NCBI GenBank assembly: GCA_947625535.1 | Contig: CANQOR010000011.1 | Location: forward strand, 1-43,611 | Direction of reading: 5' to 3' | DNA length: 43,611 nt | Source of the DNA: an uncultured Bacilli bacterium | Lineage (GTDB): Bacteria; Bacillota_I; Bacilli_A; RF39; UBA660 | Part shown: in pieces, positions 3,507-28,293 of the stretch | Numbering within the stretch: the first letter of the stretch is position 1 | Layout of the letters: each line of letters begins with the position of its first letter | Made by a program: the position numbers and the translations under genes | The notes under the pieces: model-generated | Databases searched by the model: none | Seen by the model: only the letters and a program-made list of their open reading frames with translations | Told to the model about the DNA's origin: nothing

Positions 3507-4829
3507 ATGCAATTGTATGGAATGGATAAAGAATTAATTGAGATATATAATCTTCATAATATTGAATCTATTAAGTTATGGGATTTAGTTCAAAATGGAA
3601 CTGGTAAGATGGTTGTTATACCTACTTTATTAGTAACTTATGATGGTGGCAAATACTTAAATATTGGAGCTAAAGATAAGAATTTTAGAGTCTTTGTGCA
3701 AAAAGTTGTTGAAGTTTATCATAATGAAAAAGATAATTTATTAGAAGATGGTTTAACAGATCCTTTTAGATTAAGACCAACTATTAATATTGATGAAAAA
3801 ACAAAGTCTATTTTAGAAAGTGGACGTTTAGAAGACTTAGAAGATATTTATAGTTTTTATGATAATAAAGATAGTTATGATAGTAGTTTATTATTTCAAA
3901 TTGATGAAATTAAAATGTTATTACCTATTATTAAGTATCATATTAAAAGTTTTTATAAATTTACTGATCGAGTTGTAACTTTTGATGAGGGAATTAATGG
4001 ATATAGAGATAATTATACTATAGGTGGTAAAATAGATGGAATATCAGTAAATATTAATTTACTATTTAATAAAATAGATACAAATGAATATGAAGTATAT
4101 GTTGGGGGACTTAATAAGAAAAATATACCTTTAAAAATACATATTAAGTTTAGTAAAGATGCAATTATGGTCGATGTTATTATTCCTTTATATGATGTTG
4201 TTAGTTCTCATAATTATCATATAACTAAAGGGGCACCTAAAGTAACACATGAAATAAGAAAAAAAAATCTACCAGTAGTTTTTGAAGATAGAGATTTAGA
4301 ATCAGGAGAAAATGAATGGCCGAATATTACTTCATTAGATTATGATAGTTCTTTAAGTTGGTATAAACTACCATGGAATGCTTTATATGGAGTAGATAAT
4401 AAAATTACAGAAGTTAGTGAAACAGAAAAAATAGTAGCAATTCATAATATGTATGTTGATGTTAATAGTGATAGTTTTATTAGAAGAGAGTATTATGCTA
4501 AAACATATATTAGAAATAAAACGGTAGCAGTAGATGCTAAGGAAATGGTTTTAGATGAAGTAAAAAAAGTAATAAGTGGTATTTGTTTATCAAAATCTAA
4601 TGGTTTATATGTAATAGAAACTTCTTTTGCTGATAAAGTACAAGGTGGTTCTGGTTACTATGATGATAAATTAAAAAATAGATATTTTTATCATATATGT
4701 TTAAGTAATAATGGTTTAAAAGGTATAAGAAAGGATAACTTAAAACCAGTAAGTAAGAATGATAATGTATTACAAGCTAGTGATATGTTAAATAAAGCAC
4801 AAATGTTAAAGTTAGTTAAAGGTGAGTAA
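3507..4829 (+). CDS. Unknown protein, first gene of the AAA+ ATPase operon
   Basis: 440 aa counting from ATG 3507. I chose this start because the frame further upstream runs through a terminator and the promoter itself, and because GGGTGAT sits just before 3507. The protein is not recognised. It has no signal peptide or membrane span. The middle (residues ~150-290) is rich in alternating beta-type stretches with conserved-looking PW and YDSSLSWYKLPW segments. The C-terminus is helical and lysine-rich. Its stop is 1 nt from the start of the ATPase gene, so the two are translationally coupled and the proteins probably act together. It may be a substrate-recognition or structural partner of the ATPase, but that is inferred from position only. 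Confidence 0.75.
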   Translation: MQLYGMDKELIEIYNLHNIESIKLWDLVQNGTGKMVVIPTLLVTYDGGKYLNIGAKDKNFRVFVQKVVEVYHNEKDNLLEDGLTDPFRLRPTINIDEKTKSILESGRLEDLEDIYSFYDNKDSYDSSLLFQIDEIKMLLPIIKYHIKSFYKFTDRVVTFDEGINGYRDNYTIGGKIDGISVNINLLFNKIDTNEYEVYVGGLNKKNIPLKIHIKFSKDAIMVDVIIPLYDVVSSHNYHITKGAPKVTHEIRKKNLPVVFEDRDLESGENEWPNITSLDYDSSLSWYKLPWNALYGVDNKITEVSETEKIVAIHNMYVDVNSDSFIRREYYAKTYIRNKTVAVDAKEMVLDEVKKVISGICLSKSNGLYVIETSFADKVQGGSGYYDDKLKNRYFYHICLSNNGLKGIRKDNLKPVSKNDNVLQASDMLNKAQMLKLVKGE

Positions 4830-4830
4830 G

Positions 4831-7128
4831 ATGGGTTTATTTAATGAAGAAACACAAGAAGAAAAAGATTTTAAAAGATTAATAAAAGTAATTAAAAATG
4901 CTAATTTAAATTATGAAATTATTAATTATTTAGTTAATTATGTTAGTGAAATAAGAGATAAAAAAAGAAATAATGATTTTTTTGAATTTGATTTTTTAGA
5001 AGGAATTATTTTAGAAATAGTTAATTCTTCTTTTGATAGTTATGATGAATTTTTAAATTTATATAAAAAGATATTAGAGACAGTTAATTTCTTATTACCA
5101 GAAGGAATGTTAACACCAGATTATGATGCTATTAAAAGAATGTTTATTTATAATTTTAGTGATAGTAGTAGTTTTATAGCTAAAGATGTTTTTGAACAAA
5201 AATTTTATAGTTTATTTGATTCGAGATTAGATTATCTTTATTTGATGAATTTAATAGCTAAAGATGAAGATTTAGTTAATAATTATCGTGTTATTTTAAA
5301 TTATGCTTTAGAAGTAGCACCTTATACAATTAATCAAAGCGTTTTAAAAAATGAAATATTATCTTTTATTAATGGTTTAAAAAATGAATTAGGGGATGTT
5401 ACATCTTTTAGTGAAAGAAGACTTATAGAAGCTAAGAAAAGAATGGGTGTTTATCCAATTGATGAAAAAACTTTAGCTATGATATCTGCTGAAGCAGTTA
5501 AAGCCCAGGGACTTATTACTAAATTAGAAGGAATGCAAAAAAAAGTTGATACTTATCAAGATAGAGTAACATCTTTAACTAAGGCTGGGACTAAGGAAAT
5601 TAATGATGCTTTAAAATTAGGTAAAAAAGATATTAGTGATTATGCTCAAAGTGCTATATCAGATATGAAACAAAGTATTGAAGAAGCTCGTAAAGAAATA
5701 ATAGCTAAATTAGATGAATATTTATTATCTTTAGAAAAAGCTTTAAAAGAAAGTAGTGATCAAGTATTTAAGCAATTACTTTTAGATGCCCAAGAAAAGA
5801 TAAATAGTATAAAAGTAATGGCTCAAGGATTATCTAGTACAACAACATCAGAATTACTACGTATTCAAAAAGCAACACAAGATAGTGTTGATAAATTAAA
5901 ATCTTATGTTGAAACAGAACCTCATTTACAAGAATATTTAAAGAGTGCAGCAGATAATGAACAAATAATGAGTGCTTTAAAGAAATTTAGTGAATTACAA
6001 ACAGGAGCTGCGACTCAAGCAGTTGTGGCTGCACCAACAGGAGGAATTATTATTCCAGGCAATGAACGTTTAGTAGTACCTGCTAATCCGCAAGTAATTA
6101 TTCCAAAAGAACAATCTTTAAGTATAGTAATACCTGCTTTTAATGAAAGTATTCCTTTTGATGTAAGAATGCAAAAAATTTTAGATGAGAAGAAACGTCG
6201 TGAAGAAGAAGGTGAATTCTTTCATGAGATGGTTGAAGAAGTTATTCGTTGTATTTTAGAAGGTGATTGGGTTTATCTATGGGGACCTTCAGGATGTGGC
6301 AAATCATTTGTTATTAAACAAGTGGCTGATTTAATAGGAATTGATTTAGTAGAAAATGGTAAGATAACAGATAAATACAGTGTTATGGCTTATAATGATC
6401 CACATGGTAATTTTAGAGCAACACAAGCTTTTGTTGCTTTAGTGTATGGTAAAATGTTATCTTTAGATGAATTTGATAATGGTAATACAGACACACAAGT
6501 TGTTTTAAATGAACTTTATTCTGGTCTTTTAGATGTATTAGCTAATCCAAGTAAACCTAGATATGTAACATTTGCTGAAGATATGACTGTACCTATAAAT
6601 CCTAATTTTAGAATGATAAGTGCAGGTAATACTAAAGGAGGAGGAGAAAATCAAATTTTCTCATCACGTGGTAAAATAGATGAAGCTGTTCAAGAACGTA
6701 TGACACCTAAAGAATTTAAATATGATAACTTAGTTGAACAAAAAATATTTGGTCAATATAAAGATTGGTATGAAATATTTGTTAAATTTAGAGAAGCTTG
6801 TGATATGTATGCAAAACAACATGGTTATGATACAGCACCTGGTATAGGTACAACTAGAGATGCTGCAGCTATTGTTAAATATATAAGACATAATAGTAAA
6901 TCAATAGATCAAATAATGCGTGAAAAATTTACGCAAACAAAAGAAAGAGATTATTTAAGTTTCTTAAGAAAACAATTTGGTCAATTTTATAGTTTAGATC
7001 CAGATGATTTAGATAGTTTTGATATTCCTAAAAAGTTAGATGAAGCTGATACTATGGTTTTAGCCAAATCATTTATAAAGGCTTGTAATAATAGTTTAAA
7101 TGGAACCGAGAAGAGGAAAAGAAGATAA
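4831..7128 (+). CDS. MoxR/CobS-like AAA+ ATPase with long N-terminal coiled coil
   Basis: 765 aa from ATG 4831, preceded by AAAGGTGAG. A GTG at 4822 is in frame but lacks a site. The C-terminal third is a dynein-related (AAA_5/MoxR-type) ATPase domain: Walker A GPSGCGKS at 485-492, Walker B LSLDEFDN at 543-550, then a sensor region around FRMISAGNT and an Arg-rich FSSRGKIDEAVQERM segment. Residues ~200-380 are a helical/coiled-coil region (many Lys/Glu/Gln/Ala heptads) and ~395-440 a short Ala/Val/Pro linker. Such ATPases usually remodel a partner protein and are often encoded beside it, and the flanking unknown genes fit that. No VWA domain with a clear MIDAS motif is visible next door. The last codons overlap an open frame that leads into the next gene (see findings). 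Confidence 0.85.
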   Translation: MGLFNEETQEEKDFKRLIKVIKNANLNYEIINYLVNYVSEIRDKKRNNDFFEFDFLEGIILEIVNSSFDSYDEFLNLYKKILETVNFLLPEGMLTPDYDAIKRMFIYNFSDSSSFIAKDVFEQKFYSLFDSRLDYLYLMNLIAKDEDLVNNYRVILNYALEVAPYTINQSVLKNEILSFINGLKNELGDVTSFSERRLIEAKKRMGVYPIDEKTLAMISAEAVKAQGLITKLEGMQKKVDTYQDRVTSLTKAGTKEINDALKLGKKDISDYAQSAISDMKQSIEEARKEIIAKLDEYLLSLEKALKESSDQVFKQLLLDAQEKINSIKVMAQGLSSTTTSELLRIQKATQDSVDKLKSYVETEPHLQEYLKSAADNEQIMSALKKFSELQTGAATQAVVAAPTGGIIIPGNERLVVPANPQVIIPKEQSLSIVIPAFNESIPFDVRMQKILDEKKRREEEGEFFHEMVEEVIRCILEGDWVYLWGPSGCGKSFVIKQVADLIGIDLVENGKITDKYSVMAYNDPHGNFRATQAFVALVYGKMLSLDEFDNGNTDTQVVLNELYSGLLDVLANPSKPRYVTFAEDMTVPINPNFRMISAGNTKGGGENQIFSSRGKIDEAVQERMTPKEFKYDNLVEQKIFGQYKDWYEIFVKFREACDMYAKQHGYDTAPGIGTTRDAAAIVKYIRHNSKSIDQIMREKFTQTKERDYLSFLRKQFGQFYSLDPDDLDSFDIPKKLDEADTMVLAKSFIKACNNSLNGTEKRKRR

Positions 7129-8207: not shown

Positions 8208-8208
8208 T

Positions 8209-8237
8209 TTGACAAATCAAATTATTGGTAGTAGTAT
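8209..8237 (+). promoter_or_regulatory. Sigma-A promoter of thrS
   Basis: TTGACA (8209-8214), 17-nt spacer, TAGTAT (8232-8237). Predicted start of the leader RNA is about 8244. The -35 lies 2 nt after the previous gene's stop, and there is no terminator between them. Confidence 0.85.
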
Positions 8238-8243
8238 TTAGTT

Positions 8244-8437
8244 AATTCAATGAGGAAGAACATGATTATTAATGATATTACTTAAAGAGAGTTCATGGTT
8301 GGTGGAAATGAATAGAATACTTAATAATTACTATCTTCTGAGAGGTTTAATAAAACCCGGTTAAGGCCGTTATCTAAATTAAGTTAAATAAAGGATGGTA
8401 CCGCATTATTTGCTCCTTGCAAATAATACGGTTTTTT
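8244..8437 (+). promoter_or_regulatory. T-box riboswitch controlling thrS
   Basis: The leader has the T-box parts in order. The Stem I distal region is AGAGAG...TGGTTGGTGGAAATGAA near 8286-8314. A GAAGA/TCTTC pairing closes Stem I. The conserved T-box sequence AAGGATGGTACCGC is at 8391-8404, overlapping a terminator. The specifier codon is most likely ACT (Thr) at 8330-8332, directly above the closing helix and followed by A; a second ACT at 8319-8321 is a weaker candidate. Uncharged tRNA-Thr would bind the T-box bulge and favour the antiterminator, letting RNA polymerase reach thrS. Exact pairings were drawn by eye. Confidence 0.93.
8400..8437 (+). terminator. T-box-controlled terminator before thrS
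   Basis: ACCGCATTATTTGC (8400-8413), loop TCCTT, GCAAATAATACGGT (8419-8432), then a run of T. The 5' arm shares ACCGC with the T-box sequence, so terminator and antiterminator exclude each other. Confidence 0.92.
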
Positions 8438-8462
8438 TATTTAGAAAGAAAGGATGTTTGAG

Positions 8463-10285: not shown

Positions 10286-10313
10286 TACAAGAGAATATGG
10301 GAGTGTGGCAAGT

Positions 10314-13300
10314 ATGAAAATAATGTTAATGGATGCTGCAAAATTAGTTAATTTAGTACTTCCTAATGATGTCTTTGGTAACTATTGGGTTGTTAATGCT
10401 AATAGAGATAATCTAGTTAGTGTACAAGCTGTAGATGGTAATTGGGTGTTAAAAAGCAATAGTGATGTTAAAGTATTTAGAAATGGAGCAGCTGTAGATG
10501 AAACATTACTTGAATATGAAAAATTCTATACTTTAAAAAATATATTACTTAATGAAAGCTATGTTATTTATACTTGTCCTGTATATGATTCTAATGCTTT
10601 ACAATTAAATATTACATTAAATGGTACTAATAGTGCTTTAGTATGGTATGTAGGTAATAATGGAGCTCAAAATGCTGAAACTAATTTTCCTAATATTATT
10701 TCATATGAGCAACCTGGTATAGCTAAAAATCAATTAAAATTAGAATTTAATAATGGAGTTTATGCTGTTACTAATATTAATCCGCGTATTCCAATGTATG
10801 TTAATGGTTTACCATGTGTATCTACTAATTTAAGATATGGAGATACAATTTTTGTTCTAGGTCTTAAAATATCAATAATTAAAGATATATTTTATATAAA
10901 TAATCCAAATAAATTAGTTAAATTTGATTCCCAAGTATTTAATATGCGTATTGCTCCAACATTAGATTTTTCAAAGATTCCAACTGAACCAGATCCAGTT
11001 ATTGAAATGTATAAAAAAGAAGATTACTTCTTAAAACCACCTAGATTTGATGAAAGAATTGAAGAAAAAACTTTTGTTATAGATCCACCACCTGCGGCTC
11101 AAAAACAAGAAGATATGCCGGCTATTTTAACAATGGGTTCAATGTTAATGATGGGTATGAGTTCAATGATGACAGGGGTTATGACTTTAACCAATGTTTT
11201 AAATGGAAGTACACCTTTATCTTCAGCATTACCATCTTTATTAACAGCAGCAGCAATGCTTACTTGTATGCTTGTTTTACCAACTGTTACAAAAATGTAT
11301 AATAAACATAAAAAAGTAGTTTATGAAAGAAAAAGACAAGCTACATATAGTGCTTATGTTCAGAAAAAAAGAGAAGAATTCTTAACAGAAATAAAAAGAG
11401 AACAACAAATATTAATAGAGAAATATATTCCTCTTAAAGATGTTGGAGATATTATTCTTTATAAAAAACGTAATTTATGGGAAAAGAATGTTGATGATTA
11501 TGACTTCTTATCTTTACGTTTAGGTATTGGTTCTATACCACCATATTTTAATGTTAATTATCCAGATGAACATTTCTCTATGGAAGATGAAGATAATTTA
11601 ATGGAATATTTAAGAGTCTTAGAAAAAGAAACTAATGCTTTAGAAAATGTTCCAGTTACTTATTCTTTTGTTAATAAATATATAACAGCTGTAATAGGTC
11701 AAAAAAATGTAACTAATCCTTTCTTAAGAGGTTTATTATTACAAATATTTGCTTATCATGGATATGATTCATTAAAGGTTTGTGTTTTTACTAATAAAGA
11801 AAATGAAAAGTTCTGGGAAGATATTAAAGATTGTCCATATTTCTGGGATGATAATCGTACAATAAGATTCTTTGGAACAAATAGTGATGAAATAAATCAA
11901 ATTAGTTCTTATTTTGAAGAAATGCTTGCTAATGTTAAGGAAGCTAATGAACAAAGAGATGCTGTTAGTGGAGCTGCTAAAGCAACTATTAAATTATCTA
12001 CTAGATATATAATTATTACAGATGATATTGATTTAGTAAGAAATGTTAGTGTTATTAGATCATTAATAGAATCTGTTGAATATATTGGTATCAGTTTAGT
12101 TATCTTTACAGAGAAATTAAATTCTTTACCTAATGAAGTTGAACACTTTATAAGTGTTGATGAACGTACAGGTGGAGTATTTGAAAGAGTATTATCTGAT
12201 AGTAAAAGAATTAATTTTGTACCAGATTTTATGTATGGTTCATTAGAAAAATATACTTATGTTTTATCTAATATTCCAATTGCGTTAAATGGTGGTAAAT
12301 TCCAATTACCAGCTTCTTATTCATTCTTGGAAATGTATAATGTATCAAATGTTAACCAATTGAATGCTTTATCAAGATGGAAAGAAAGTGATCCGATTAA
12401 TTCACTAGCGGCACCAATTGGAATTAATGAATATGGTGATTTATTTAAATTAGACTTACATGAAAAAGCTCATGGACCACATGGCTTAATAGCTGGTATG
12501 ACTGGTTCTGGTAAATCAGAATTCATTATTACATTTATTTTAAGTACAGCAGTTAATTTCCATCCATATGAAGTTCAATTTGTTTTAATCGACTATAAAG
12601 GTGGTGGACTTGCTGGAGCTTTTGAAAATAGAGAAACAGGATTAAGATTACCACATTTAGCTGGTACTATTACAAACTTAGATGTTAGTGAAATTAATCG
12701 TAGTTTAGCTTCATTACAAAGTGAATTAAAACGTCGTCAAGCAGTATTTAATAAAGCAAGAGATAAAGTTGGTGAATCAACAATTGATATTTATAAATAT
12801 CAAAGATTATATCGTAATGGTCAAGTTGATGAACCAGTAGCACACTTATTTATTATTTCCGATGAGTTTGCTGAGTTAAAAGCTCAACAACCAGATTTTA
12901 TGAACGAACTTATTTCAACTGCTCGTATAGGTCGTTCTTTAGGCGTTCACTTAATCTTAGCAACACAAAAACCTAGTGGTGTAGTTAATGATCAAATTTG
13001 GTCAAATGCGAAGTTTAAAGTATGTTTAAAAGTTCAAGATAGATCAGATAGTCAAGAAATGATTAAAAGACCTGATGCAGCTTCTTTAAAAGAAACTGGA
13101 CGTTTCTTCTTACAAGTAGGTTATGATGAATACTTTGCAATGGGTCAATCAGCTTGGACAGGTGCACCTTATTATGAATCTGATGTTCGTAAGAAGAAAG
13201 TAGATAATTCTATTACTTTTGTTGATAATTTAGGAATGCCGATTAAAGTAGTAGAAGATGGACGTAATAGTGTTTCTGGTGTATTAAAAGGTGAAGAATT

Positions 13301-14981
13301 ACCTAATATTATGAAATATTTAGTAGATGTTTCTAAAAAAGAAAATATTAAAGTTAAACAATTATGGTTAAATGCTTTATCACCAATTATTTATATAGAT
13401 GCTTTAAAAGAAAAATATAGTTATAAAAAAGTATCTTGTGATATTAATCCAGTAATTGGTGAATATGATGCCCCTAATTTACAACAACAAGGCTTACTTA
13501 CTATGCCAATTACTAGAGAAGGTAACTGGATAGTTTATGGTATGTCTGATAGTGGTAAAGAAGAAATGATTAATTCATTTGTTTATTCTTGTATTACAAC
13601 ATATTCACCAGCAGAACTTAATCTATATTTATTAGATTTTGGTGGCGAGACATTAAAAATGTATCGTAAAGCTCCACAAGTTGGTGATGTTATTTTACAA
13701 AATGACGTTGATAAAGTTACTAACTTATGGAAAGTTATTAGTGATACTATAGCTAAACGTAAAAAGTTATTTGCTGATTTTGGTGGAGATTATATATCTT
13801 ATTCTAAAGCAACTGGTAAAGTTGTACCTAATATAATAATTATCATTAATGGTTTTGAGTTATATAATGAAAATTTTGGAGATAGTACTTTTGATTTGTT
13901 AGCAACTATTACAAGAGATTGTCAGAAATATGGTGTTTACTTTATTATGACATCTACTACTTCTAATGGTATTAGAAGTAGATTAGCACAATACTTACCA
14001 AATCACTTAGTATTCCAAATGAATGATAAGTATGATTACTCTTCATTATTAGCTAGAACTAAGATTGAACCAGCTGCTGTATCTGGACGTGGTTTAGTTA
14101 AATTAGATGCTGTATTTGAATTCCAAGCAGCTGTACCAACAGAAAAGGAAAATTTAAATACATTTGTCTTAGATAAGATTAATGAGTTATGTAAATTATA
14201 TCCAGAGAGTGCACCTAAGGTTCCTGTATTACCAGAAGTTGTTACAGTTTCTTATTGTTCTGATCAAATGATGGGACTTACTTCAGTACCTGTTGGTGTT
14301 GAAAAAGAATCATTACAAGTTAGAACTCTTGATGTTACTAAGAATACTGTTCATTTAATTACTGGTATGGAATTAAATGAAATTAAAACATTTGGTGAAA
14401 TGTTTATTAGAGAATTAGCTAAGTTAGTTGGCAAGAATTGTTTTGTATTTGACTTGGAAAAGTTATATAAAAATATTTCTGATATTACAACTTATTATGA
14501 TACTAATATTGTTGAAGAATTTAAAAAAGTTGGTAAAACAATATTTGATATGTATACGACATATAAAGATAATGGATTCGATGTCAATGCTTTAAAAGAT
14601 AAAGGTGATATCGTTTGTGTTATTGTTGGAATTGAGAAATTTAAGAACATGATGGGTTCAGAATTTGATGGCGCATACAGCGGATTACTTTCAATGATGA
14701 AAGGAATGCCAAAAGCATATTTTGTTTTAATTGATACTTGTGATAACTTCAAGAAACGTGAATTTGAACCTTGGTATAAAGATACTATTTCTGGTACTAA
14801 AGGTATTTGGGTTGGTAACGGAATGGGTACACAATACACTATTAAGTCAACATTAACTTCACGTGTTTTATCAGCTAAATTAGAGAAAAACTTTGGTTAT
14901 TACGTAGATGGAAATACGACAGTTTTAATTAAAGTAATCTCTGAAGTTGGTGAAGAGGAAGAAGTATATGAAACATTATGA
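10314..14981 (+). CDS. essC: T7SS membrane ATPase EssC (FtsK/SpoIIIE family)
   Basis: Motor and channel component of the Firmicutes type VII secretion system. 1555 aa from ATG 10314, ~10 nt after GGGAG; a GTG at 10305 is in frame but too close to that site. Order of parts: two FHA-like beta domains (residues ~1-95 and ~100-205), two adjacent membrane spans at ~266-290 and ~305-328, a linker domain, then three FtsK-type ATPase domains. The first is intact: Walker A GMTGSGKS at 728-735, Walker B FIISDEF with Asp850/Glu851. The second has GMSDSGKEE at 1076-1084, with the Walker A Ser/Thr replaced by Glu. The third (around ITGMELNEIKTF) has no P-loop lysine. This one-active, two-degenerate arrangement and overall length match Staphylococcus/Bacillus EssC/YukB. 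It has its own promoter and terminator, separate from the substrate cassettes downstream. Confidence 0.95.
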   Translation: MKIMLMDAAKLVNLVLPNDVFGNYWVVNANRDNLVSVQAVDGNWVLKSNSDVKVFRNGAAVDETLLEYEKFYTLKNILLNESYVIYTCPVYDSNALQLNITLNGTNSALVWYVGNNGAQNAETNFPNIISYEQPGIAKNQLKLEFNNGVYAVTNINPRIPMYVNGLPCVSTNLRYGDTIFVLGLKISIIKDIFYINNPNKLVKFDSQVFNMRIAPTLDFSKIPTEPDPVIEMYKKEDYFLKPPRFDERIEEKTFVIDPPPAAQKQEDMPAILTMGSMLMMGMSSMMTGVMTLTNVLNGSTPLSSALPSLLTAAAMLTCMLVLPTVTKMYNKHKKVVYERKRQATYSAYVQKKREEFLTEIKREQQILIEKYIPLKDVGDIILYKKRNLWEKNVDDYDFLSLRLGIGSIPPYFNVNYPDEHFSMEDEDNLMEYLRVLEKETNALENVPVTYSFVNKYITAVIGQKNVTNPFLRGLLLQIFAYHGYDSLKVCVFTNKENEKFWEDIKDCPYFWDDNRTIRFFGTNSDEINQISSYFEEMLANVKEANEQRDAVSGAAKATIKLSTRYIIITDDIDLVRNVSVIRSLIESVEYIGISLVIFTEKLNSLPNEVEHFISVDERTGGVFERVLSDSKRINFVPDFMYGSLEKYTYVLSNIPIALNGGKFQLPASYSFLEMYNVSNVNQLNALSRWKESDPINSLAAPIGINEYGDLFKLDLHEKAHGPHGLIAGMTGSGKSEFIITFILSTAVNFHPYEVQFVLIDYKGGGLAGAFENRETGLRLPHLAGTITNLDVSEINRSLASLQSELKRRQAVFNKARDKVGESTIDIYKYQRLYRNGQVDEPVAHLFIISDEFAELKAQQPDFMNELISTARIGRSLGVHLILATQKPSGVVNDQIWSNAKFKVCLKVQDRSDSQEMIKRPDAASLKETGRFFLQVGYDEYFAMGQSAWTGAPYYESDVRKKKVDNSITFVDNLGMPIKVVEDGRNSVSGVLKGEELPNIMKYLVDVSKKENIKVKQLWLNALSPIIYIDALKEKYSYKKVSCDINPVIGEYDAPNLQQQGLLTMPITREGNWIVYGMSDSGKEEMINSFVYSCITTYSPAELNLYLLDFGGETLKMYRKAPQVGDVILQNDVDKVTNLWKVISDTIAKRKKLFADFGGDYISYSKATGKVVPNIIIIINGFELYNENFGDSTFDLLATITRDCQKYGVYFIMTSTTSNGIRSRLAQYLPNHLVFQMNDKYDYSSLLARTKIEPAAVSGRGLVKLDAVFEFQAAVPTEKENLNTFVLDKINELCKLYPESAPKVPVLPEVVTVSYCSDQMMGLTSVPVGVEKESLQVRTLDVTKNTVHLITGMELNEIKTFGEMFIRELAKLVGKNCFVFDLEKLYKNISDITTYYDTNIVEEFKKVGKTIFDMYTTYKDNGFDVNALKDKGDIVCVIVGIEKFKNMMGSEFDGAYSGLLSMMKGMPKAYFVLIDTCDNFKKREFEPWYKDTISGTKGIWVGNGMGTQYTIKSTLTSRVLSAKLEKNFGYYVDGNTTVLIKVISEVGEEEEVYETL

Positions 14982-14983
14982 TA

Positions 14984-15012
14984 AAAAAGTTAATTAACGT
15001 TAACTTTTTTTT
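14984..15012 (+). terminator. Terminator after essC
   Basis: AAAAAGTTAA (14984-14993), loop TTAACG, TTAACTTTTT (15000-15009), continuing T-run. It begins 3 nt after the essC stop. Confidence 0.85.
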
Positions 15013-15019
15013 CATTTCG

Positions 15020-15048
15020 TTGACTTTACTTTTTTTTTAGAGTATTAT
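15020..15048 (+). promoter_or_regulatory. Sigma-A promoter of T7SS cassette A
   Basis: TTGACT (15020-15025), 17-nt spacer, TATTAT (15043-15048). Predicted start near 15055. It lies directly behind the essC terminator, so cassette A is independently transcribed. Confidence 0.85.
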
Positions 15049-15054
15049 GAGTAT

Positions 15055-15146
15055 ATAAGAGTGTAGTCGATAGTTAGGGGAATTGGTCGGAAATGGTAAG
15101 GCTATCATATATTCTTAAATCTACTTTTAAATAGGGAGGTTTTATT
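15055..15146 (+). promoter_or_regulatory. Leader of cassette A with box shared with cassette B
   Basis: About 90 nt untranslated. AGTTAGGGG at 15072-15080 followed by TTGGT at 15083-15087 recurs at the same distance from the promoter in the cassette B leader. GATAG and CTATC flanking this region could close a stem. The leader ends with the Shine-Dalgarno AGGGAGG for esaB. Confidence 0.45.
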
Positions 15147-15404
15147 ATGAACAATAATAAAGTCTGCGTAGATTTGATTGTACCTAGCATTGAAGAAAGA
15201 TACAATGTTTTTATTCCTGTTAATAAGAAGACTATTGAAATTATATTCTTATTAAATAAAGCGATTAATGATATGACATATGGAAGTTTTGTTATGTCTG
15301 AACAACTATCGTTAATTAATGCTGACACTGGTGCTGTTTATGATGTTAATAATACATTCTTGGAAAATAACATCTTAAATGGTGCAAAATTAATACTATT
15401 ATGA
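15147..15404 (+). CDS. esaB: EsaB/YukD ubiquitin-like T7SS protein
   Basis: 85 aa, the size of YukD/EsaB, a cytoplasmic ubiquitin-fold protein of Firmicutes T7SS loci. The sequence has the beta-grasp pattern. A first strand (KVCVDLIVPSIEERYNVFIP) leads to a helix (KKTIEIIFLLNKAIND), later strands follow around QLSLINADTGAVYDVNNT, and the protein ends LNGAKLILL. The glycine tail of ubiquitin is absent, as is usual for YukD. It is first in cassette A, preceded by AGGGAGG, and its TGA stop lies 13 nt before the next start. Cassette B has no copy, so this one probably serves both. Its exact role (cytosolic assembly or regulation) is not settled for the family. Confidence 0.9.
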   Translation: MNNNKVCVDLIVPSIEERYNVFIPVNKKTIEIIFLLNKAINDMTYGSFVMSEQLSLINADTGAVYDVNNTFLENNILNGAKLILL

Positions 15405-15417
15405 GGAGGTGGAATTA

Positions 15418-15741
15418 ATGGCTACAGGAGAAGGAGTTGCAGGTGCAGATTTAAACGTAAATCCAGCTGGTTTACAATCATTATCTGAAGAAATGTCTAA
15501 TGCTCAATCAGCATTTGAAGCTGCTATTGAATCTATTGATACTGAAGTTATGAATATTGCAGGTAACGCAATGGGTGCTGATAGTGTTGATTATCAAGCA
15601 TTTGTTCAAAAATACCAAAGTGAAATGAAACCATTAGCAGAAGAAATTTCTGAAACATTGGAAAGCCATGCTTCAAAAGCAGCAACAACTGCAAGTAATG
15701 CTGGCGATACTATTGCAGCAAATCTTAAAGTTATTGGTTAG
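15418..15741 (+). CDS. WXG100-like small helical protein without the Trp (cassette A, position 1)
   Basis: 107 aa from ATG 15418, 5-6 nt after GGAGGTGG; the GTG at 15409 lies inside that site. Predicted as a helix-turn-helix hairpin of WXG100 size: first helix around SLSEEMSNAQSAFEAAIESI, a turn at NAMGADSVDYQAF, second helix EMKPLAEEISETLESHASKA. The turn keeps the Gly and the later Phe of the family but has no Trp; there is no Trp in the whole protein. By position it matches the WXG100 protein that opens cassette B. It is likely a secreted T7SS substrate or a dimer partner of the next gene product, which does contain a Trp. Confidence 0.8.
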   Translation: MATGEGVAGADLNVNPAGLQSLSEEMSNAQSAFEAAIESIDTEVMNIAGNAMGADSVDYQAFVQKYQSEMKPLAEEISETLESHASKAATTASNAGDTIAANLKVIG

Positions 15742-15772
15742 TTATTAAAATTTATTATGAAAGAGGTGCAAT

Positions 15773-16090
15773 ATGGCAGAACAAACTACGTCAGTTAATG
15801 TCGAGGCATTAAGACAAGCTCAATCTAAATTAAACGAATCAGCTGATGAATCTTTTACACAATATAGTAATGCAGATTCTAGAATGCAAGAACGTGTAGG
15901 TAACTCAGGTGATGGTTCTTTGGGTGGTAAATTAGGTAATATGGTTAATAGTCAATGGTCTGAAGATACTGTTGAAGCAGTTAATAGATATAAAGAACAA
16001 GCTCAACATTTATTAAATGAAGCTTTATCTACTATTGGCCAAAATGCAGCTAATTTATCTGCTGAGACTGAGTCAGTATATAAAAATTAA
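15773..16090 (+). CDS. Small helical T7SS-associated protein (cassette A, position 2)
   Basis: 105 aa, all-helical, Gln/Asn/Ser/Glu-rich, with ATG 15773 behind GAGGTG. The first helix spans about residues 7-45. A glycine-rich turn (SGDGSLGGKLGN) precedes NSQWSED, and a second helix runs through EQAQHLLNEALSTIGQNAANL. It has a Trp but no W-x-G. Size and placement suit a WXG100-type partner, probably forming a four-helix heterodimer with the product of the preceding gene. Cassette B has a 103-aa protein in the same slot with the same SQW tripeptide but little other obvious identity. A pair of hairpins begins 7 nt after the stop. Confidence 0.75.
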   Translation: MAEQTTSVNVEALRQAQSKLNESADESFTQYSNADSRMQERVGNSGDGSLGGKLGNMVNSQWSEDTVEAVNRYKEQAQHLLNEALSTIGQNAANLSAETESVYKN

Positions 16091-16097
16091 TTATTGT

Positions 16098-16160
16098 ACT
16101 GTGTCTTTGACACAGTTCATTATAAGTGAAAGATAGAAATATCTTTTATTTATAATGAAC
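16098..16160 (+). other. Twin intercistronic hairpins, cassette A
   Basis: Hairpin 1: ACTGTGTC (16098-16105), loop TTT, GACACAGT (16109-16116). Hairpin 2: a 21-bp stem with two G·T pairs, arms 16115-16135 and 16140-16160, closed by a GAAA tetraloop. The two share bases 16115-16116. There is no U-tract, so neither is a normal terminator. They sit between the second and third genes, exactly where cassette B has the same two-hairpin arrangement. A likely role is processing, stability or partial attenuation that makes the upstream small proteins more abundant; this is inference. Confidence 0.85.
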
Positions 16161-16184
16161 TTGAAGTATAAGGAGGAATAAATT

Positions 16185-16568
16185 ATGTCATTACAATCGT
16201 TGGTTACAGCTCAAGCAGATATGGGTGGAGGAAGTGGATATAGTGATGACGTTTATAGCTTTGCTGTAGATGCTTCTCAAATAGAAGATTTGTGTGAATT
16301 TTTAACATCAAAAGCAGATGATTTGCAAACAGCCTTTGATGGTATTTTTAGTGAGATAGTTGCTATGGAAAGTGATGCGTGGTCCGGAACTTCTTACGAA
16401 ACTTTTAGAACTAAATGTTATGAATATAAACCTGCTATGGATGCTTTAGTTGCTATATTTAGGGCATATGTATCTCTTTATCAAAAAGAAGTAACTGATG
16501 CTAAACAAATTTTAGATGAAACGTTAGATAATGCTTTTGCAAATGCTTCTGATGATAGAGAATACTAA
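16185..16568 (+). CDS. WXG100 protein (cassette A, position 3)
   Basis: 127 aa from ATG 16185, preceded by AAGGAGGA. A clear WXG motif, W66-S-G68, sits between two long helices, in the pattern DAWSGTSYETF; the second helix runs through VAIFRAYVSLYQKEVTDAKQ. It is longer than a classic 100-aa EsxA because of a ~25-residue Gly/Ser-rich N-terminal stretch and an acidic tail. It aligns by eye with the N-terminal ~100 residues of the 423-aa protein in the same slot of cassette B: ADDLQ..F..IFSEI..ME.D.W.G..Y..F against ADKFD..V.DLYTEI..MG...WVG.DY.MF. Predicted to be secreted through EssC. Confidence 0.88.
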   Translation: MSLQSLVTAQADMGGGSGYSDDVYSFAVDASQIEDLCEFLTSKADDLQTAFDGIFSEIVAMESDAWSGTSYETFRTKCYEYKPAMDALVAIFRAYVSLYQKEVTDAKQILDETLDNAFANASDDREY

Positions 16569-20840: not shown

Positions 20841-21218
20841 ATGAGAGAAAAATATTTACCAATTGGAACAGTAGTTTTATTAAAGGGTGGAAAGAAAAGA
20901 GCGATGATTACAGGATTCTGTTCAGTAGCTCAAGAAAACCAAGAAAAAATCTATGACTATAGTGGTTGTGTTTATCCAGAAGGATACTTAAGTTCTAATC
21001 AAGTTTGTTTATTTGATCATGAACAAATCGAAAAAATATTCTTCTTAGGATTCGAAGACGAAGAAGAAAAAGTATTTAAAGACAAATTAAATAAAATTGT
21101 TGCTTCTATTGAAGATGAAAATAAAAATACTACTGCTAATGTTCAAGAAGCAGCTGTAGCTCAAAATAACAGTGCTACTCCTGTAACACCTTTTACACCA
21201 TTAGCTGAAGAAAATTAG
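20841..21218 (+). CDS. DUF4176 protein (cassette A, position 7)
   Basis: 125 aa. The first ~75 residues (KYLPIGTVVLLKGGKKRAMI, then DYSGCVYPEG and LFDHEQIEKIFFLGFEDE) match what I know as DUF4176, a small domain repeatedly found in Firmicutes T7SS loci. The fold looks like a compact beta barrel; function unknown. The last ~45 residues are a low-complexity Asn/Ala/Thr tail. Two further copies lie in cassette B and align throughout the domain. ATG 20841 follows GAGGAGGA. It is the last gene of cassette A; a terminator begins just after its stop. Confidence 0.88.
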   Translation: MREKYLPIGTVVLLKGGKKRAMITGFCSVAQENQEKIYDYSGCVYPEGYLSSNQVCLFDHEQIEKIFFLGFEDEEEKVFKDKLNKIVASIEDENKNTTANVQEAAVAQNNSATPVTPFTPLAEEN

Positions 21219-21737: not shown

Positions 21738-22049
21738 ATGAATACATTTGATTATGCTGCATTTAATGAACAATATGAAATTTTAAATAAGATTATTGGT
21801 GGAGCTGAAACTGATCCTTCTACAATAAATGGTGTTGTAGCTGCAAGTAATCGTTCAATATCAGAAGGACTAGAATATGCTTCAGATAGTCAATGGGCAA
21901 ATTCTAAATTAAATGAATGGAATGATTTAATGCCTAATCTAAAAACTCAACTTGATAATTTAGCAACTATGTTGCAACAAGCTAAAGCTGCTGCAGATGC
22001 TTATTATCAATTTGAACAAGCTCATACTGGAATTAAAGCTGGTAATTAA
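21738..22049 (+). CDS. Small helical T7SS-associated protein (cassette B, position 2)
   Basis: 103 aa, ATG 21738 behind GAGAGGTGA. It aligns by eye with the first ~105 residues of the 468-aa protein two genes downstream: both begin FDY, share a KI(I/T)G...DP(S/E)(T/S)I(N/A)GV segment and finish the domain with YYQFE/YQQFE. It is therefore a stand-alone version of the domain that heads that larger protein. Trp residues in DSQWANSKLNEW replace a W-x-G turn. Probably a WXG100-superfamily partner or chaperone. A pair of hairpins starts 10 nt after its stop. Confidence 0.8.
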   Translation: MNTFDYAAFNEQYEILNKIIGGAETDPSTINGVVAASNRSISEGLEYASDSQWANSKLNEWNDLMPNLKTQLDNLATMLQQAKAAADAYYQFEQAHTGIKAGN

Positions 22050-22059
22050 TAAAAATATA

Positions 22060-22116
22060 TGTACTACGATAAGTAGTACATTGTAAGTTGCTAAGGTATT
22101 AGCGATTTACAATGTA
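22060..22116 (+). other. Twin intercistronic hairpins, cassette B
   Basis: Hairpin 1: TGTACTAC (22060-22067), loop GATAA, GTAGTACA (22073-22080), 8 bp. Hairpin 2: arms 22078-22094 and 22099-22115, 17 bp with two G·T pairs plus a possible extra T-A pair, closed by GGTA. The hairpins share about 3 bases and have no U-tract. Same position, same two-part form and nearly the same distances to flanking stop and start codons as the pair in cassette A, with unrelated sequence. Confidence 0.85.
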
Positions 22117-22143
22117 TTATTTATACAGAAAGATGGTGTTGAA

Positions 22144-23415
22144 ATGGCAGGAAGTTGGGATTTTACAGCTGATAGCGATATACAAAGGACTCTTGCAAGT
22201 AATTTAAATACAGATGCGGATAAGTTTGATACGAGAGTAGGAGATTTATATACTGAAATTAATTCTATGGGATCAAACGGTTATTGGGTTGGCGAAGATT
22301 ATGATATGTTTGTAACAGGAACTGAAGGATACAAAAGTGCTCTTCAGGATTTATCTGATGGAATTAGAATGTTTGCTACTCATTTTGAAAAAGTTGCTGA
22401 AGGAACTGATACATTAGCTACAGAACTAATAGATATAATTATGAATGCTACTGGTACTGGTGGCGGAAATGGTGGAAACGGAAACGGTGGAAACGGAAAC
22501 AATGGCAATAACGGAAATAATGGCAACAATGGTAATAATGGAAACAATGGTAATAACGGCAACAATGGTAATAATGGAAACAATGGTAACAACGGTAATA
22601 ACGGCAACAATGGCAATAATGGTAACAATGGTAACAATGGTAACAACGGTAGTACAGGAGTAACAACTTTAAATAGTGGTGATTCTGTAAAAGTAAACGG
22701 TAAAGATTACAATTACTATGGTTCAGTTAGAAAAGCTAATGGTGCTATTGTAAATATGTTTGCTGATAATATTGGTCACTTATATTATCAAGATGAAAGT
22801 GGAAACGTAGTTAGTGTTAAAGCTTCTTATGTAAATAGTAATGGCCAAACAGTTACAAGTGATGCAACAATTAGTGATTTAGGTAGACAGATACCAATGG
22901 AAGCTCATGGTGCTAGATATAATGCTCCAGTTCTATTGAAAGTTGGAGATGACATTACATTATCTAATGATAATAATATAGCATCTTCAGTAACATTAAA
23001 TGGTGTTTCTAATGCTCCAGTATCTAATGGTACTAATGGAGGTGCTTATCTTCAAAATGATGTTTCTTATGAAACAGATGGTTCTGTTTTAGATTCGTAT
23101 GGTACTGGTCTTGATGGTGGAAGTGTAAATGGTGATACTTTAGTTAAAGCAATGGGAATGGATTATTTCCAACGTTATGCTCAAGAAGGAACAGTTATTC
23201 AAGTACCACAAGGAACTAAATTACAATGGGATCCAGCTTGGAATGTCACTGGTTATGACTTTGATGCAAGCAAAGGACCTATATATTTAAAATGGGATCC
23301 AAGTGCTGCTGATGGCAAGGGTGCTTATCATTTGGTTGATGAATATGGAAATGTAAGATTAAATAGAGATTTTACCTTAGATGGTTTTAATAATGACGCT
23401 GGTCATTGGAAATAG
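22144..23415 (+). CDS. WXG100 domain fused via Asn-Gly repeats to a C-terminal module (cassette B, position 3)
   Basis: 423 aa. Residues ~1-100 form a WXG100 domain with W48-V-G50 (GYWVGEDYDMF), paralogous to the 127-aa protein in cassette A. Residues ~106-169 are an almost pure Asn-Asn-Gly tract encoded by an in-frame 9-bp-type repeat, presumably a flexible spacer. Residues ~179-246 contain a module (GDSVKVNGKDYNYYG...GHLYYQDESGNVVSVKASYV) that recurs near the C-terminus of the next protein. The last ~170 residues (strand-rich, with FQRYAQEGTVIQVPQGTKLQ and many Asp/Gly) resemble the outline of a small toxin or extracellular enzyme domain (it ends LDGFNNDAGHWK), but I cannot name it. ATG 22144 has only a weak site (AGATGGTG). 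Confidence 0.8.
   Translation: MAGSWDFTADSDIQRTLASNLNTDADKFDTRVGDLYTEINSMGSNGYWVGEDYDMFVTGTEGYKSALQDLSDGIRMFATHFEKVAEGTDTLATELIDIIMNATGTGGGNGGNGNGGNGNNGNNGNNGNNGNNGNNGNNGNNGNNGNNGNNGNNGNNGNNGNNGNNGNNGSTGVTTLNSGDSVKVNGKDYNYYGSVRKANGAIVNMFADNIGHLYYQDESGNVVSVKASYVNSNGQTVTSDATISDLGRQIPMEAHGARYNAPVLLKVGDDITLSNDNNIASSVTLNGVSNAPVSNGTNGGAYLQNDVSYETDGSVLDSYGTGLDGGSVNGDTLVKAMGMDYFQRYAQEGTVIQVPQGTKLQWDPAWNVTGYDFDASKGPIYLKWDPSAADGKGAYHLVDEYGNVRLNRDFTLDGFNNDAGHWK
22459..22650 (+). repeat. Tandem 9-bp-type repeat encoding Asn-Asn-Gly
   Basis: About 190 bp of GGNAAC/T AAC/T units (for example GGTAACAAT, GGCAATAAC) in frame within the WXG fusion gene. Synonymous third-base changes break perfect identity. 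Copy-number change would keep the frame and alter only spacer length. Confidence 0.93.
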
Positions 23416-27601: not shown

Positions 27602-28012
27602 ATGAATAAAGAACTTTTACCTATAGGTACGGTTGTTTTACTTGAAGGTGGTACTAAAAAGGTTATGATTTGTGGATATTCATCAAAAGCAAAAGATGAA
27701 GACAAAGTATATGATTATAATGGTTGTGTATTCCCTGAAGGATTTTTAAATAATACATTTTGTTTATTTGATAAAAAACAAATTCAAGATGTTTGTTATA
27801 TGGGGTATATAGATAATGATTATAATAAACAAGTTGATAAGATATTATCTACTAATTTATCTTCTGCTGGTAATGGATTAACTTATGAATCTAATTCTAG
27901 TAGTAATGCTCCAACTAAACGTGGTAGGACACCTAAAGCTCCTACTAATCCAATGTCTAAATCTGAAATGCTTAGTAAATATGGTGTTACTAAGATGTCT
28001 AGGGATGATTAA
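27602..28012 (+). CDS. DUF4176 protein (cassette B, position 7)
   Basis: 136 aa. The DUF4176 domain spans residues ~3-75 (LLPIGTVVLLEGGTKKVMIC, DYNGCVFPEG, LFDKKQIQDVCYMGY). The remaining ~60 residues are a Ser/Asn-rich linker and a basic tail (TKRGRTPKAPTNPMSKSEML). It aligns with the copies at 20841 and 28024. A GGTGAGAA site precedes ATG 27602. Eleven nucleotides separate its stop from the next DUF4176 gene. Confidence 0.88.
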   Translation: MNKELLPIGTVVLLEGGTKKVMICGYSSKAKDEDKVYDYNGCVFPEGFLNNTFCLFDKKQIQDVCYMGYIDNDYNKQVDKILSTNLSSAGNGLTYESNSSSNAPTKRGRTPKAPTNPMSKSEMLSKYGVTKMSRDD

Positions 28013-28023
28013 GGAGGACTACT

Positions 28024-28293
28024 ATGAAAGAAAAATATTTACCAATAGGAACTGTTGTATTACTTAAGGGTGGTTCTCATAAAGTAATGATTAATGGTTA
28101 CTGTGCAAGAGCTGAAGAAAAAAAAGATAAAGTATTTGATTATAGAGGATGTCCTTATCCAGAAGGAATAATGGAAACTAATGGTGTTGCATTATTCGAT
28201 ATTGATCAAATAGAAAAAGTTTGTCATATGGGATTTAAAAATGATGAATCTTTAGATTTCTTAGATAAACTTGAAATTATTACAACTAAATAA
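28024..28293 (+). CDS. DUF4176 protein (cassette B, position 8)
   Basis: 89 aa, a minimal single-domain copy: KYLPIGTVVLLKGGSHKVMI, DYRGCPYPEG, LFDIDQIEKVCHMGF. It is closer in its first 30 residues to the cassette A copy (same KEKYLPIGTVVLLKGG opening as REKYLPIGTVVLLKGG) than to its neighbour, suggesting it is the original cassette member and the 136-aa copy an addition, or the reverse. ATG 28024 follows AAGGAGGA. It is the last gene of cassette B; a terminator overlaps the stop. Confidence 0.88.
   Translation: MKEKYLPIGTVVLLKGGSHKVMINGYCARAEEKKDKVFDYRGCPYPEGIMETNGVALFDIDQIEKVCHMGFKNDESLDFLDKLEIITTK

What the first reader, a model, noticed from the sequence alone, without database searches (positions are those of the whole stretch)
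22060..22116. Same twin-hairpin element in cassette B with unrelated sequence
An 8-bp stem followed by a 17-18-bp stem closed by GGTA, sharing about 3 bases, 10 nt after the stop and 27 nt before the next start. Within a single genome this is the second independent instance of the element at the homologous position, so chance inverted repeats are unlikely.
Basis: seen in the sequence. Interest (0 to 1): 0.7.

Follow-up and report, generated by a model that had tools for sequence, protein, structure and literature searches.

The report
Conserved RNA switch after secretion-adaptor genes
Between the two small adaptor genes and the effector genes of a bacterial type VII secretion operon sits a previously unlisted, strongly conserved RNA structure with two overlapping, mutually exclusive hairpins, which probably sets how much adaptor is made relative to effector.

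Summary
In detail: an 8-bp hairpin (P2) overlaps a long hairpin (P3) at 22060-22124, between two type VII secretion (T7SS) genes. P3 can extend from 18 to 26 bp by displacing P2. It is not chance (z = -7.4; no other intergenic hairpin of 20 bp or more in a 443-kb scan). Covariance models found about 50 copies in at least 16 genera of one family of uncultured gut Bacilli. Every credible copy lies just after the stop codon (median 4 nt) of the second of two small WXG100-type genes, about 20 nt before the next start. Both helices covary massively (98% paired), with triple covariation at shared bases. G-U pairs outnumber A-C mismatches 63:3, so RNA on the coding strand is selected. It has no U-tract, Rfam match or conserved loop, so it is not a terminator, a known RNA or an evident riboswitch. 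Most likely it is an intercistronic mRNA processing and stabilising element that uncouples adaptor from effector expression. A ribosome-gated switch is the main rival. The mechanism is inferred, untested.

The parts
21738..22049 (+). Upstream gene: second small WXG100-type helical protein of cassette B (103 aa)
   Evidence: ORF. No Pfam hit alone. Profile of 27 such upstream proteins matches EsxA/EsxB structures at E 2e-5. Orthologues in genus.
22060..22080 (+). P2 hairpin: TGTACTAC-GATAA-GTAGTACA (8 bp), 10 nt after the stop codon
   Evidence: P2 98.2% paired in 43 sequences, 6 of 8 pairs changed on both sides.
22069..22124 (+). P3 long hairpin: 18-bp core 22077-22094/22099-22116, extendable to 26 bp (22069-22094/22099-22124), loop GGTA 22095-22098
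   Evidence: P3 98.4% paired, 16 of 20 pairs changed on both sides.
22073..22080 (+). Shared middle strand: pairs either with 22060-22067 (P2) or with 22113-22120 (P3)
   Evidence: Triple covariation at shared columns. All five conserved shared columns pair in both helices in 35 of 43 sequences.
22135..22138 (+). Likely Shine-Dalgarno (GGTG) of the downstream gene, outside the hairpins
   Evidence: Sequence. AGAAAGATGGTG conserved across genus B copies.
22144..23415 (+). Downstream gene: WXG-like N-terminus plus linker (423 aa)
   Evidence: N-terminus homologous to window:16185-16568.
16094..16171 (+). Paralogous element A: P2 16098-16105/16109-16116, P3 16114-16135/16140-16161 (22 bp), optional outer pairing 16094-16100 with 16165-16171 (three-way junction) next to SD 16171-16176
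   Evidence: Same family by covariance model, 80.4 bits (A) and 80.0 bits (B).
15773..16090 (+). Upstream gene of element A: second WXG100-type gene (105 aa)
16185..16568 (+). Downstream gene of element A: WXG100 protein (127 aa)
   Evidence: Pfam WXG100 E 2e-5.

Best explanation
It is a conserved cis-acting intercistronic mRNA element at the junction between a pair of WXG100-type adaptor genes and the effector genes of a T7SS operon. Most likely it works by selective processing and stabilisation. The full P3 (21 bp or more, unbroken) is a double-stranded processing or blocking site. Once the message is cut or trimmed there, the shared middle strand is freed and snaps into P2, a hairpin a few bases after the adaptor stop codon, which caps the adaptor mRNA against 3'-5' decay. 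The effector part keeps a short leader with its own ribosome site. The result would be more adaptor (WXG100 pair) than effector from one transcript. Shown here by sequence: the two helices, their mutual exclusion, the RNA nature and strand, the position, the gene context. Inferred: that a nuclease (RNase III is encoded in this genome) cuts P3, that P2 protects, and the expression ratio.
For: P3 is never shorter than 21 bp in 46 of 46 copies, whereas only 6-16 bp remain when P2 is intact in 45 of 46; bacterial RNase III generally prefers about two helical turns (own knowledge). P2 begins within 11 nt of the stop in 43 of 46. No U-tract after P3 (median 2 T in 10) and no room for a promoter, the next start being about 20 nt away. 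G-U versus A-C 63:3 means RNA of the coding strand. Loops are not conserved, so no aptamer is evident. RNase III gene present. Precedents: intergenic stem-loops without U-runs at 3' ends of processed messages set subunit stoichiometry in Clostridium cellulolyticum (PMC4423207); S. aureus RNase III cuts a long hairpin upstream of the cspA SD and improves its translation (PMC3386247).
Against: No transcript data exist for these uncultured bacteria. A simple protective hairpin would not need a conserved overlap of P2 with P3, nor the conserved sequence inside P3 (UAARU.AAAG/CUUUUAUUUA). P3 is usually the more stable fold (median 3.4 kcal/mol), so P2 may rarely form unless P3 is cut. In M. smegmatis a double hairpin in the esxB 5' leader gave no mRNA stability (PMC11728522), although its position differs. 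In G012 a real terminator follows element B, so there the downstream gene need not share the transcript.
Confidence: 0.45

Rival explanations
1. Ribosome-gated bistable switch: the ribosome ending translation of the second adaptor gene covers the 5' arm of P2, frees the middle strand and lets P3 grow to full length; without it P2 forms and P3 stays short. The state then controls decay, processing or translation of the effector genes in response to adaptor translation.
For: Stop-to-P2 distance is short and conserved (median 4 nt, 43 of 46 at 11 nt or less), within a ribosome footprint. Overlap is conserved in 45 of 46 credible copies, with triple covariation. The two states lie within 3 kcal/mol in 15 of 47.
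Against: The SD of the next gene is not sequestered in either predicted state. The seg3:seg4 mini-hairpin that would complete an attenuator is barely above shuffles (4.98 vs 4.49 bp). No terminator is attached in general.
Confidence: 0.27
2. Binding site of an RNA-binding protein (possibly a T7SS component) that feeds back on effector translation.
For: Sequence is conserved inside the helix beyond pairing needs, e.g. columns 50-51 A-U in 43 of 43 and the column 52 A/G with invariant U. Strict confinement to WXG100-effector junctions.
Against: Loops and bulges, the usual specific protein contacts, are not conserved. No candidate protein is known.
Confidence: 0.12
3. DNA-level element: recombination or cassette-exchange site between adaptor and effector modules.
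For: In L169 a 779-bp exact repeat holding both adaptors, the element and the SD ends at the SD, after which two different effector genes follow.
Against: G-U 63 versus A-C 3 (p 1e-15) shows selection on single-stranded coding-strand RNA. Fixed orientation and fixed distance to stop and start. One copy per locus. No match in the viral-contig collection for one narrow core pattern.
Confidence: 0.07
4. Intrinsic terminator or attenuator at the end of the adaptor genes.
For: Position after a stop codon; long stem. G012 has a separate U-tracted hairpin right after it.
Against: No U-tract, A+U-rich stem base, downstream SD about 20 nt away in the same orientation, Shine-Dalgarno within 22 nt of the start in 42 of 45 copies with a start called.
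Confidence: 0.04
5. Generic inverted repeat or mobile palindrome (REP/MITE-like).
For: Near-perfect long inverted repeat.
Against: Single copy per locus, none elsewhere in the genome, covariation, strict gene context.
Confidence: 0.02

Closest known systems
Selective RNA processing and stabilisation stem-loops (C. cellulolyticum cip-cel, PMC4423207)
   Same: Intercistronic stem-loops after highly needed subunit genes, mostly without U-runs, in operons for multi-protein complexes with unequal stoichiometry.
   Different: Those are not one homologous family and no pair of overlapping, mutually exclusive helices was reported in the parts read here. Processing was measured there and is only inferred here.
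S. aureus cspA 5'-UTR hairpin cut by RNase III (PMC3386247)
   Same: Long hairpin just upstream of a Shine-Dalgarno; cleavage shortens the leader and aids expression.
   Different: A 5' UTR of a single gene, not an intercistronic junction; not homologous as far as tested (no Rfam hit).
M. smegmatis esxB 5'-UTR double stem-loop (PMC11728522)
   Same: Pair of hairpins next to WXG100 (esx) genes.
   Different: Upstream of, not after, the esx pair. No homology tested here. Deleting the hairpins did not change stability there.
LXG effector operons with Lap1/Lap2 adaptors (PMC9600955)
   Same: Two small helical genes directly before a T7SSb effector, with DUF4176 genes nearby.
   Different: No intergenic RNA was reported in the passages found (0 occurrences of 'intergenic' or 'mRNA').
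trp-type attenuators and bistable leaders (own knowledge)
   Same: A middle strand that pairs with either of two partners, beside a stop codon.
   Different: No terminator arm, no leader peptide; the middle and 3' strands are joined by a long hairpin.

Membership tests
Rfam families (release 15) | Score at or above a curated gathering threshold | tested here: not met
   0 matches in the whole window.
Intrinsic terminator | G+C-rich stem followed by a U-tract | tested here: not met
   Median 2 T in the 10 nt after P3 in 46 copies.
Riboswitch | Conserved aptamer loops or junction nucleotides | tested here: not met
   P2 and P3 loops vary in sequence and length; conservation sits in helices.
Conserved cis-acting structured RNA | Covariation supporting a common structure, coding-strand bias | tested here: met
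Selective RNA processing and stabilisation element | Intercistronic stem-loop without U-run after a gene needed in excess | tested here: met
   Position and lack of U-run met; excess need is inferred.
Selective RNA processing and stabilisation element | Mapped processed 3' end and higher abundance of the upstream segment | not testable with these tools
   No transcriptome available.
RNase III substrate | Uninterrupted duplex of about 20 bp or more; enzyme present | tested here: met
   P3 21-32 bp in 46 of 46; RNase III gene in genome.
RNase III substrate | Cleavage in vitro or in vivo | not testable with these tools
   Needs experiment.
Ribosome-dependent attenuator | Mutually exclusive helices near a stop or leader codon | tested here: met
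   Overlap in 45 of 46 credible copies, triple covariation, short stop distance.
Ribosome-dependent attenuator | One state carries a terminator or hides the SD | tested here: not met
   No U-tract; SD unpaired in both predicted states of the copies shown.

The most novel reading that the evidence does not exclude
A ribosome-gated dsRNA switch dedicated to T7SS operons: translation termination of the adaptor pair decides whether a middle strand forms a short protective hairpin or completes a 21-bp-plus duplex that is processed, so that effector output is tied to adaptor synthesis. It would be the first regulatory RNA family tied to T7SS adaptor-effector junctions that I could find.
Probability: 0.25. 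Interest if true: 0.8.

Novelty: new variant of a known kind. Interest (0 to 1): 0.62.

Why it matters
T7SS effectors travel with small WXG100-like adaptors, and how cells set adaptor-to-effector ratios in these operons is, to my knowledge, not worked out. Here a single conserved RNA, found in at least 16 genera of one uncultured gut lineage, marks exactly that junction. Its structure (two helices sharing one strand beside a stop codon) makes clear, testable predictions with reporters in a harmless laboratory strain. The covariance model could also serve as a marker for such operons in metagenomes.

Tried and rejected
Terminator: no U-tract. Known RNA: no Rfam match. Promoter hidden in the element: no plausible -35/-10 spacing seen by eye and the covariation argues against it. 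Mobile repeat: one copy per locus. Phage origin: no viral contig matched one core pattern. DNA site: G-U asymmetry. Upstream/downstream small-hairpin (seg3:seg4) as a general third arm: only marginally above shuffles. Outer P1 helix (three-way junction): clear in genus A copies but absent in several B copies, so not a defining part. Hits outside the family, G686/L166/L201 and the in-family weak hit G392/L191, have no WXG100 neighbours and were set aside; weak hits L125 and L129 likewise. One Pfam call failed on wrong coordinates.

Full report
OBSERVATION. The element described at 22060-22116 is there as stated: stop at 22047-22049, P2 TGTACTAC/GTAGTACA, P3 with loop GGTA, next ATG at 22144. 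P3 extends to 26 bp without mismatch by taking the 3' arm of P2 (22069-22124). RNA folding gives -32.3 kcal/mol against -13.8 +/- 2.5 in dinucleotide shuffles (z -7.4; element A z -7.3). The two longest intergenic hairpins of the window are A and B. A scan of 443 kb including the window, with at most three G-U pairs allowed (so B itself, with four, is listed only), found no other intergenic hairpin of 20 or more pairs; it did pick up one hairpin that looks like the known CIRCE operator (TTAGCACTC..GAGTGCTAA type, by eye), a useful internal control.

FAMILY. The window is contig C11 of a 1.8-Mb, 113-contig genome. Orthologues of the gene before B, and of the genes after A and B, were searched in relatives. 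In the genus, B recurs at the same place nearly unchanged in six genomes and with compensatory changes in two more; a pattern for its first half hits once per genome, with zero hits for the reversed control. A also recurs, and A and B share the core AGTACATTRTAAGT...ATTTAYAATGTAYT. They are therefore one family, contrary to 'unrelated sequence'. A covariance model (R1) finds both copies in eight of 15 genomes of the genus and one copy in five; the other two are incomplete assemblies. In a sample of 291 genomes of the family it hits 27. A second model (R2) hits 18 of 337 in the order, 6 of 395 in the class and 4 of 392 in the phylum, all credible hits within the one family. A core-pattern scan of named genomes gave MAGs labelled uncultured Bacilli, Firmicutes, Tenericutes or Erysipelotrichaceae, several from rabbit gut; one contig of 26,360 bases matches G013 in length and position. 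The unrelated hits of that pattern score low with R1.

CONTEXT. In each credible locus the order is WXG100-type gene 1, WXG100-type gene 2, element, ORF3, often a longer effector-like ORF, all in one direction. WXG100 is found by Pfam in 16 of 24 first genes and 10 of 27 second genes, and the profile of the second genes matches EsxA/ESAT-6 structures (E 2e-5). In the family sample, 22 of 27 element-positive genomes have a WXG100 match versus 75 of 264 others (Fisher p 9e-8). Of the five exceptions two are weak non-T7SS hits and three have adaptor genes too divergent for the Pfam threshold. The element is not an attribute of every WXG100 gene: three other WXG100 clusters of the same genome have tight gene spacing and no element, and most WXG100-positive genomes of the family were not hit.

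STRUCTURE. Forty-seven copies were measured; one (L166) was later rejected. Stop to P2: median 4 nt. P3 to start: median 20 nt. P2 and P3 overlap by 6 nt or more in 45 of the 46 credible copies. On 43 aligned sequences P3 is 98.4% paired with 16 of 20 pairs changed on both sides and a covariation score of 0.538 versus 0.218 in shuffles; P2 is 98.2% paired, 0.567 versus 0.292 (slid controls far lower). At shared column 43 the three strands change together (T-A-T 29, C-G-C 13, other 1), and 35 of 43 sequences keep all five shared columns paired in both helices. Departures from Watson-Crick are G-U in 63 cells and A-C in 3 (p 1e-15; cells are not independent events because of shared ancestry), which points to RNA of the coding strand rather than DNA. 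Some copies were found with a structure model, so the pairing percentages lean upward for those; the genus copies were found through proteins.

MECHANISM. The sequence rules out an intrinsic terminator (no U-tract) and gives no sign of an aptamer (variable loops). The downstream gene has its own Shine-Dalgarno and starts about 20 nt after P3, so in general the element is transcribed within the operon. All 46 copies have a full P3 of 21 bp or more, and in 45 of 46 only 6-16 bp remain if P2 is intact. This is what a duplex processing site with an alternative form below the usual RNase III length would look like; the length preference of RNase III is own knowledge, and the genome encodes RNase III. 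I therefore favour selective processing and stabilisation: cut or block at P3, then P2 forms as a 3' cap of the adaptor message, giving more adaptor than effector. Precedents are in C. cellulolyticum (PMC4423207) and S. aureus cspA (PMC3386247). The conserved closeness of P2 to the stop codon equally suits a ribosome-gated switch, the main rival. Neither has been tested.

NOVELTY. No Rfam family matches. Literature searches joining WXG100, type VII secretion and RNA motif or hairpin terms found no description, within the limits of an open-access library; supplementary tables of metagenomic RNA surveys such as PMC8040213 were not searched. I class it as a new variant of a known kind: intercistronic regulatory mRNA structures are known, this homologous, bistable, T7SS-bound family seems not to be.

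Noticed in passing
L169 (CANQIL010000007.1) 881-1659 and 4176-4954: A 779-bp exact repeat holds the adaptor region, the element and the Shine-Dalgarno and ends at AAGGAGG just before the start codon; two different effector genes follow. Suggests exchange of effector modules behind a constant adaptor-element module.
   Followed up: partly
L059 / G012:C17 near 1954: Element B is directly followed by a U-tracted terminator-like hairpin (AAGGAATTCATAATTCCTTTTTT) and a longer gap before the effector gene, unlike all other copies.
   Followed up: partly
window 16094-16100 with 16165-16171: Genus A copies can form an outer helix that closes a three-way junction right before the SD; missing in several B copies.
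   Followed up: partly
window 10305-16090: FtsK/SpoIIIE-type EssC-like ATPase gene followed by an 85-aa gene, two WXG100-type genes and element A: the core T7SS locus, with element A inside it.
   Followed up: no
window 20841-21218, 27602-28293: Three DUF4176 genes close the two cassettes; in G332 and G108 a DUF4176-like gene directly follows the element instead.
   Followed up: no
L141:10687-10734: CIRCE-like inverted repeat (HrcA operator) in the same genome, picked up as an internal control of the hairpin scan.
   Followed up: no
window 8208-8453: Long structured leader before the threonyl-tRNA synthetase gene (fold about -53 kcal/mol with terminator-like end), T-box-like in position, but below Rfam's gathering score.
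   Followed up: no
A4 columns 50-52 / 79-81: Near-invariant AA(A/G)/UUU inside P3 beyond what pairing needs; reason unknown.
   Followed up: no
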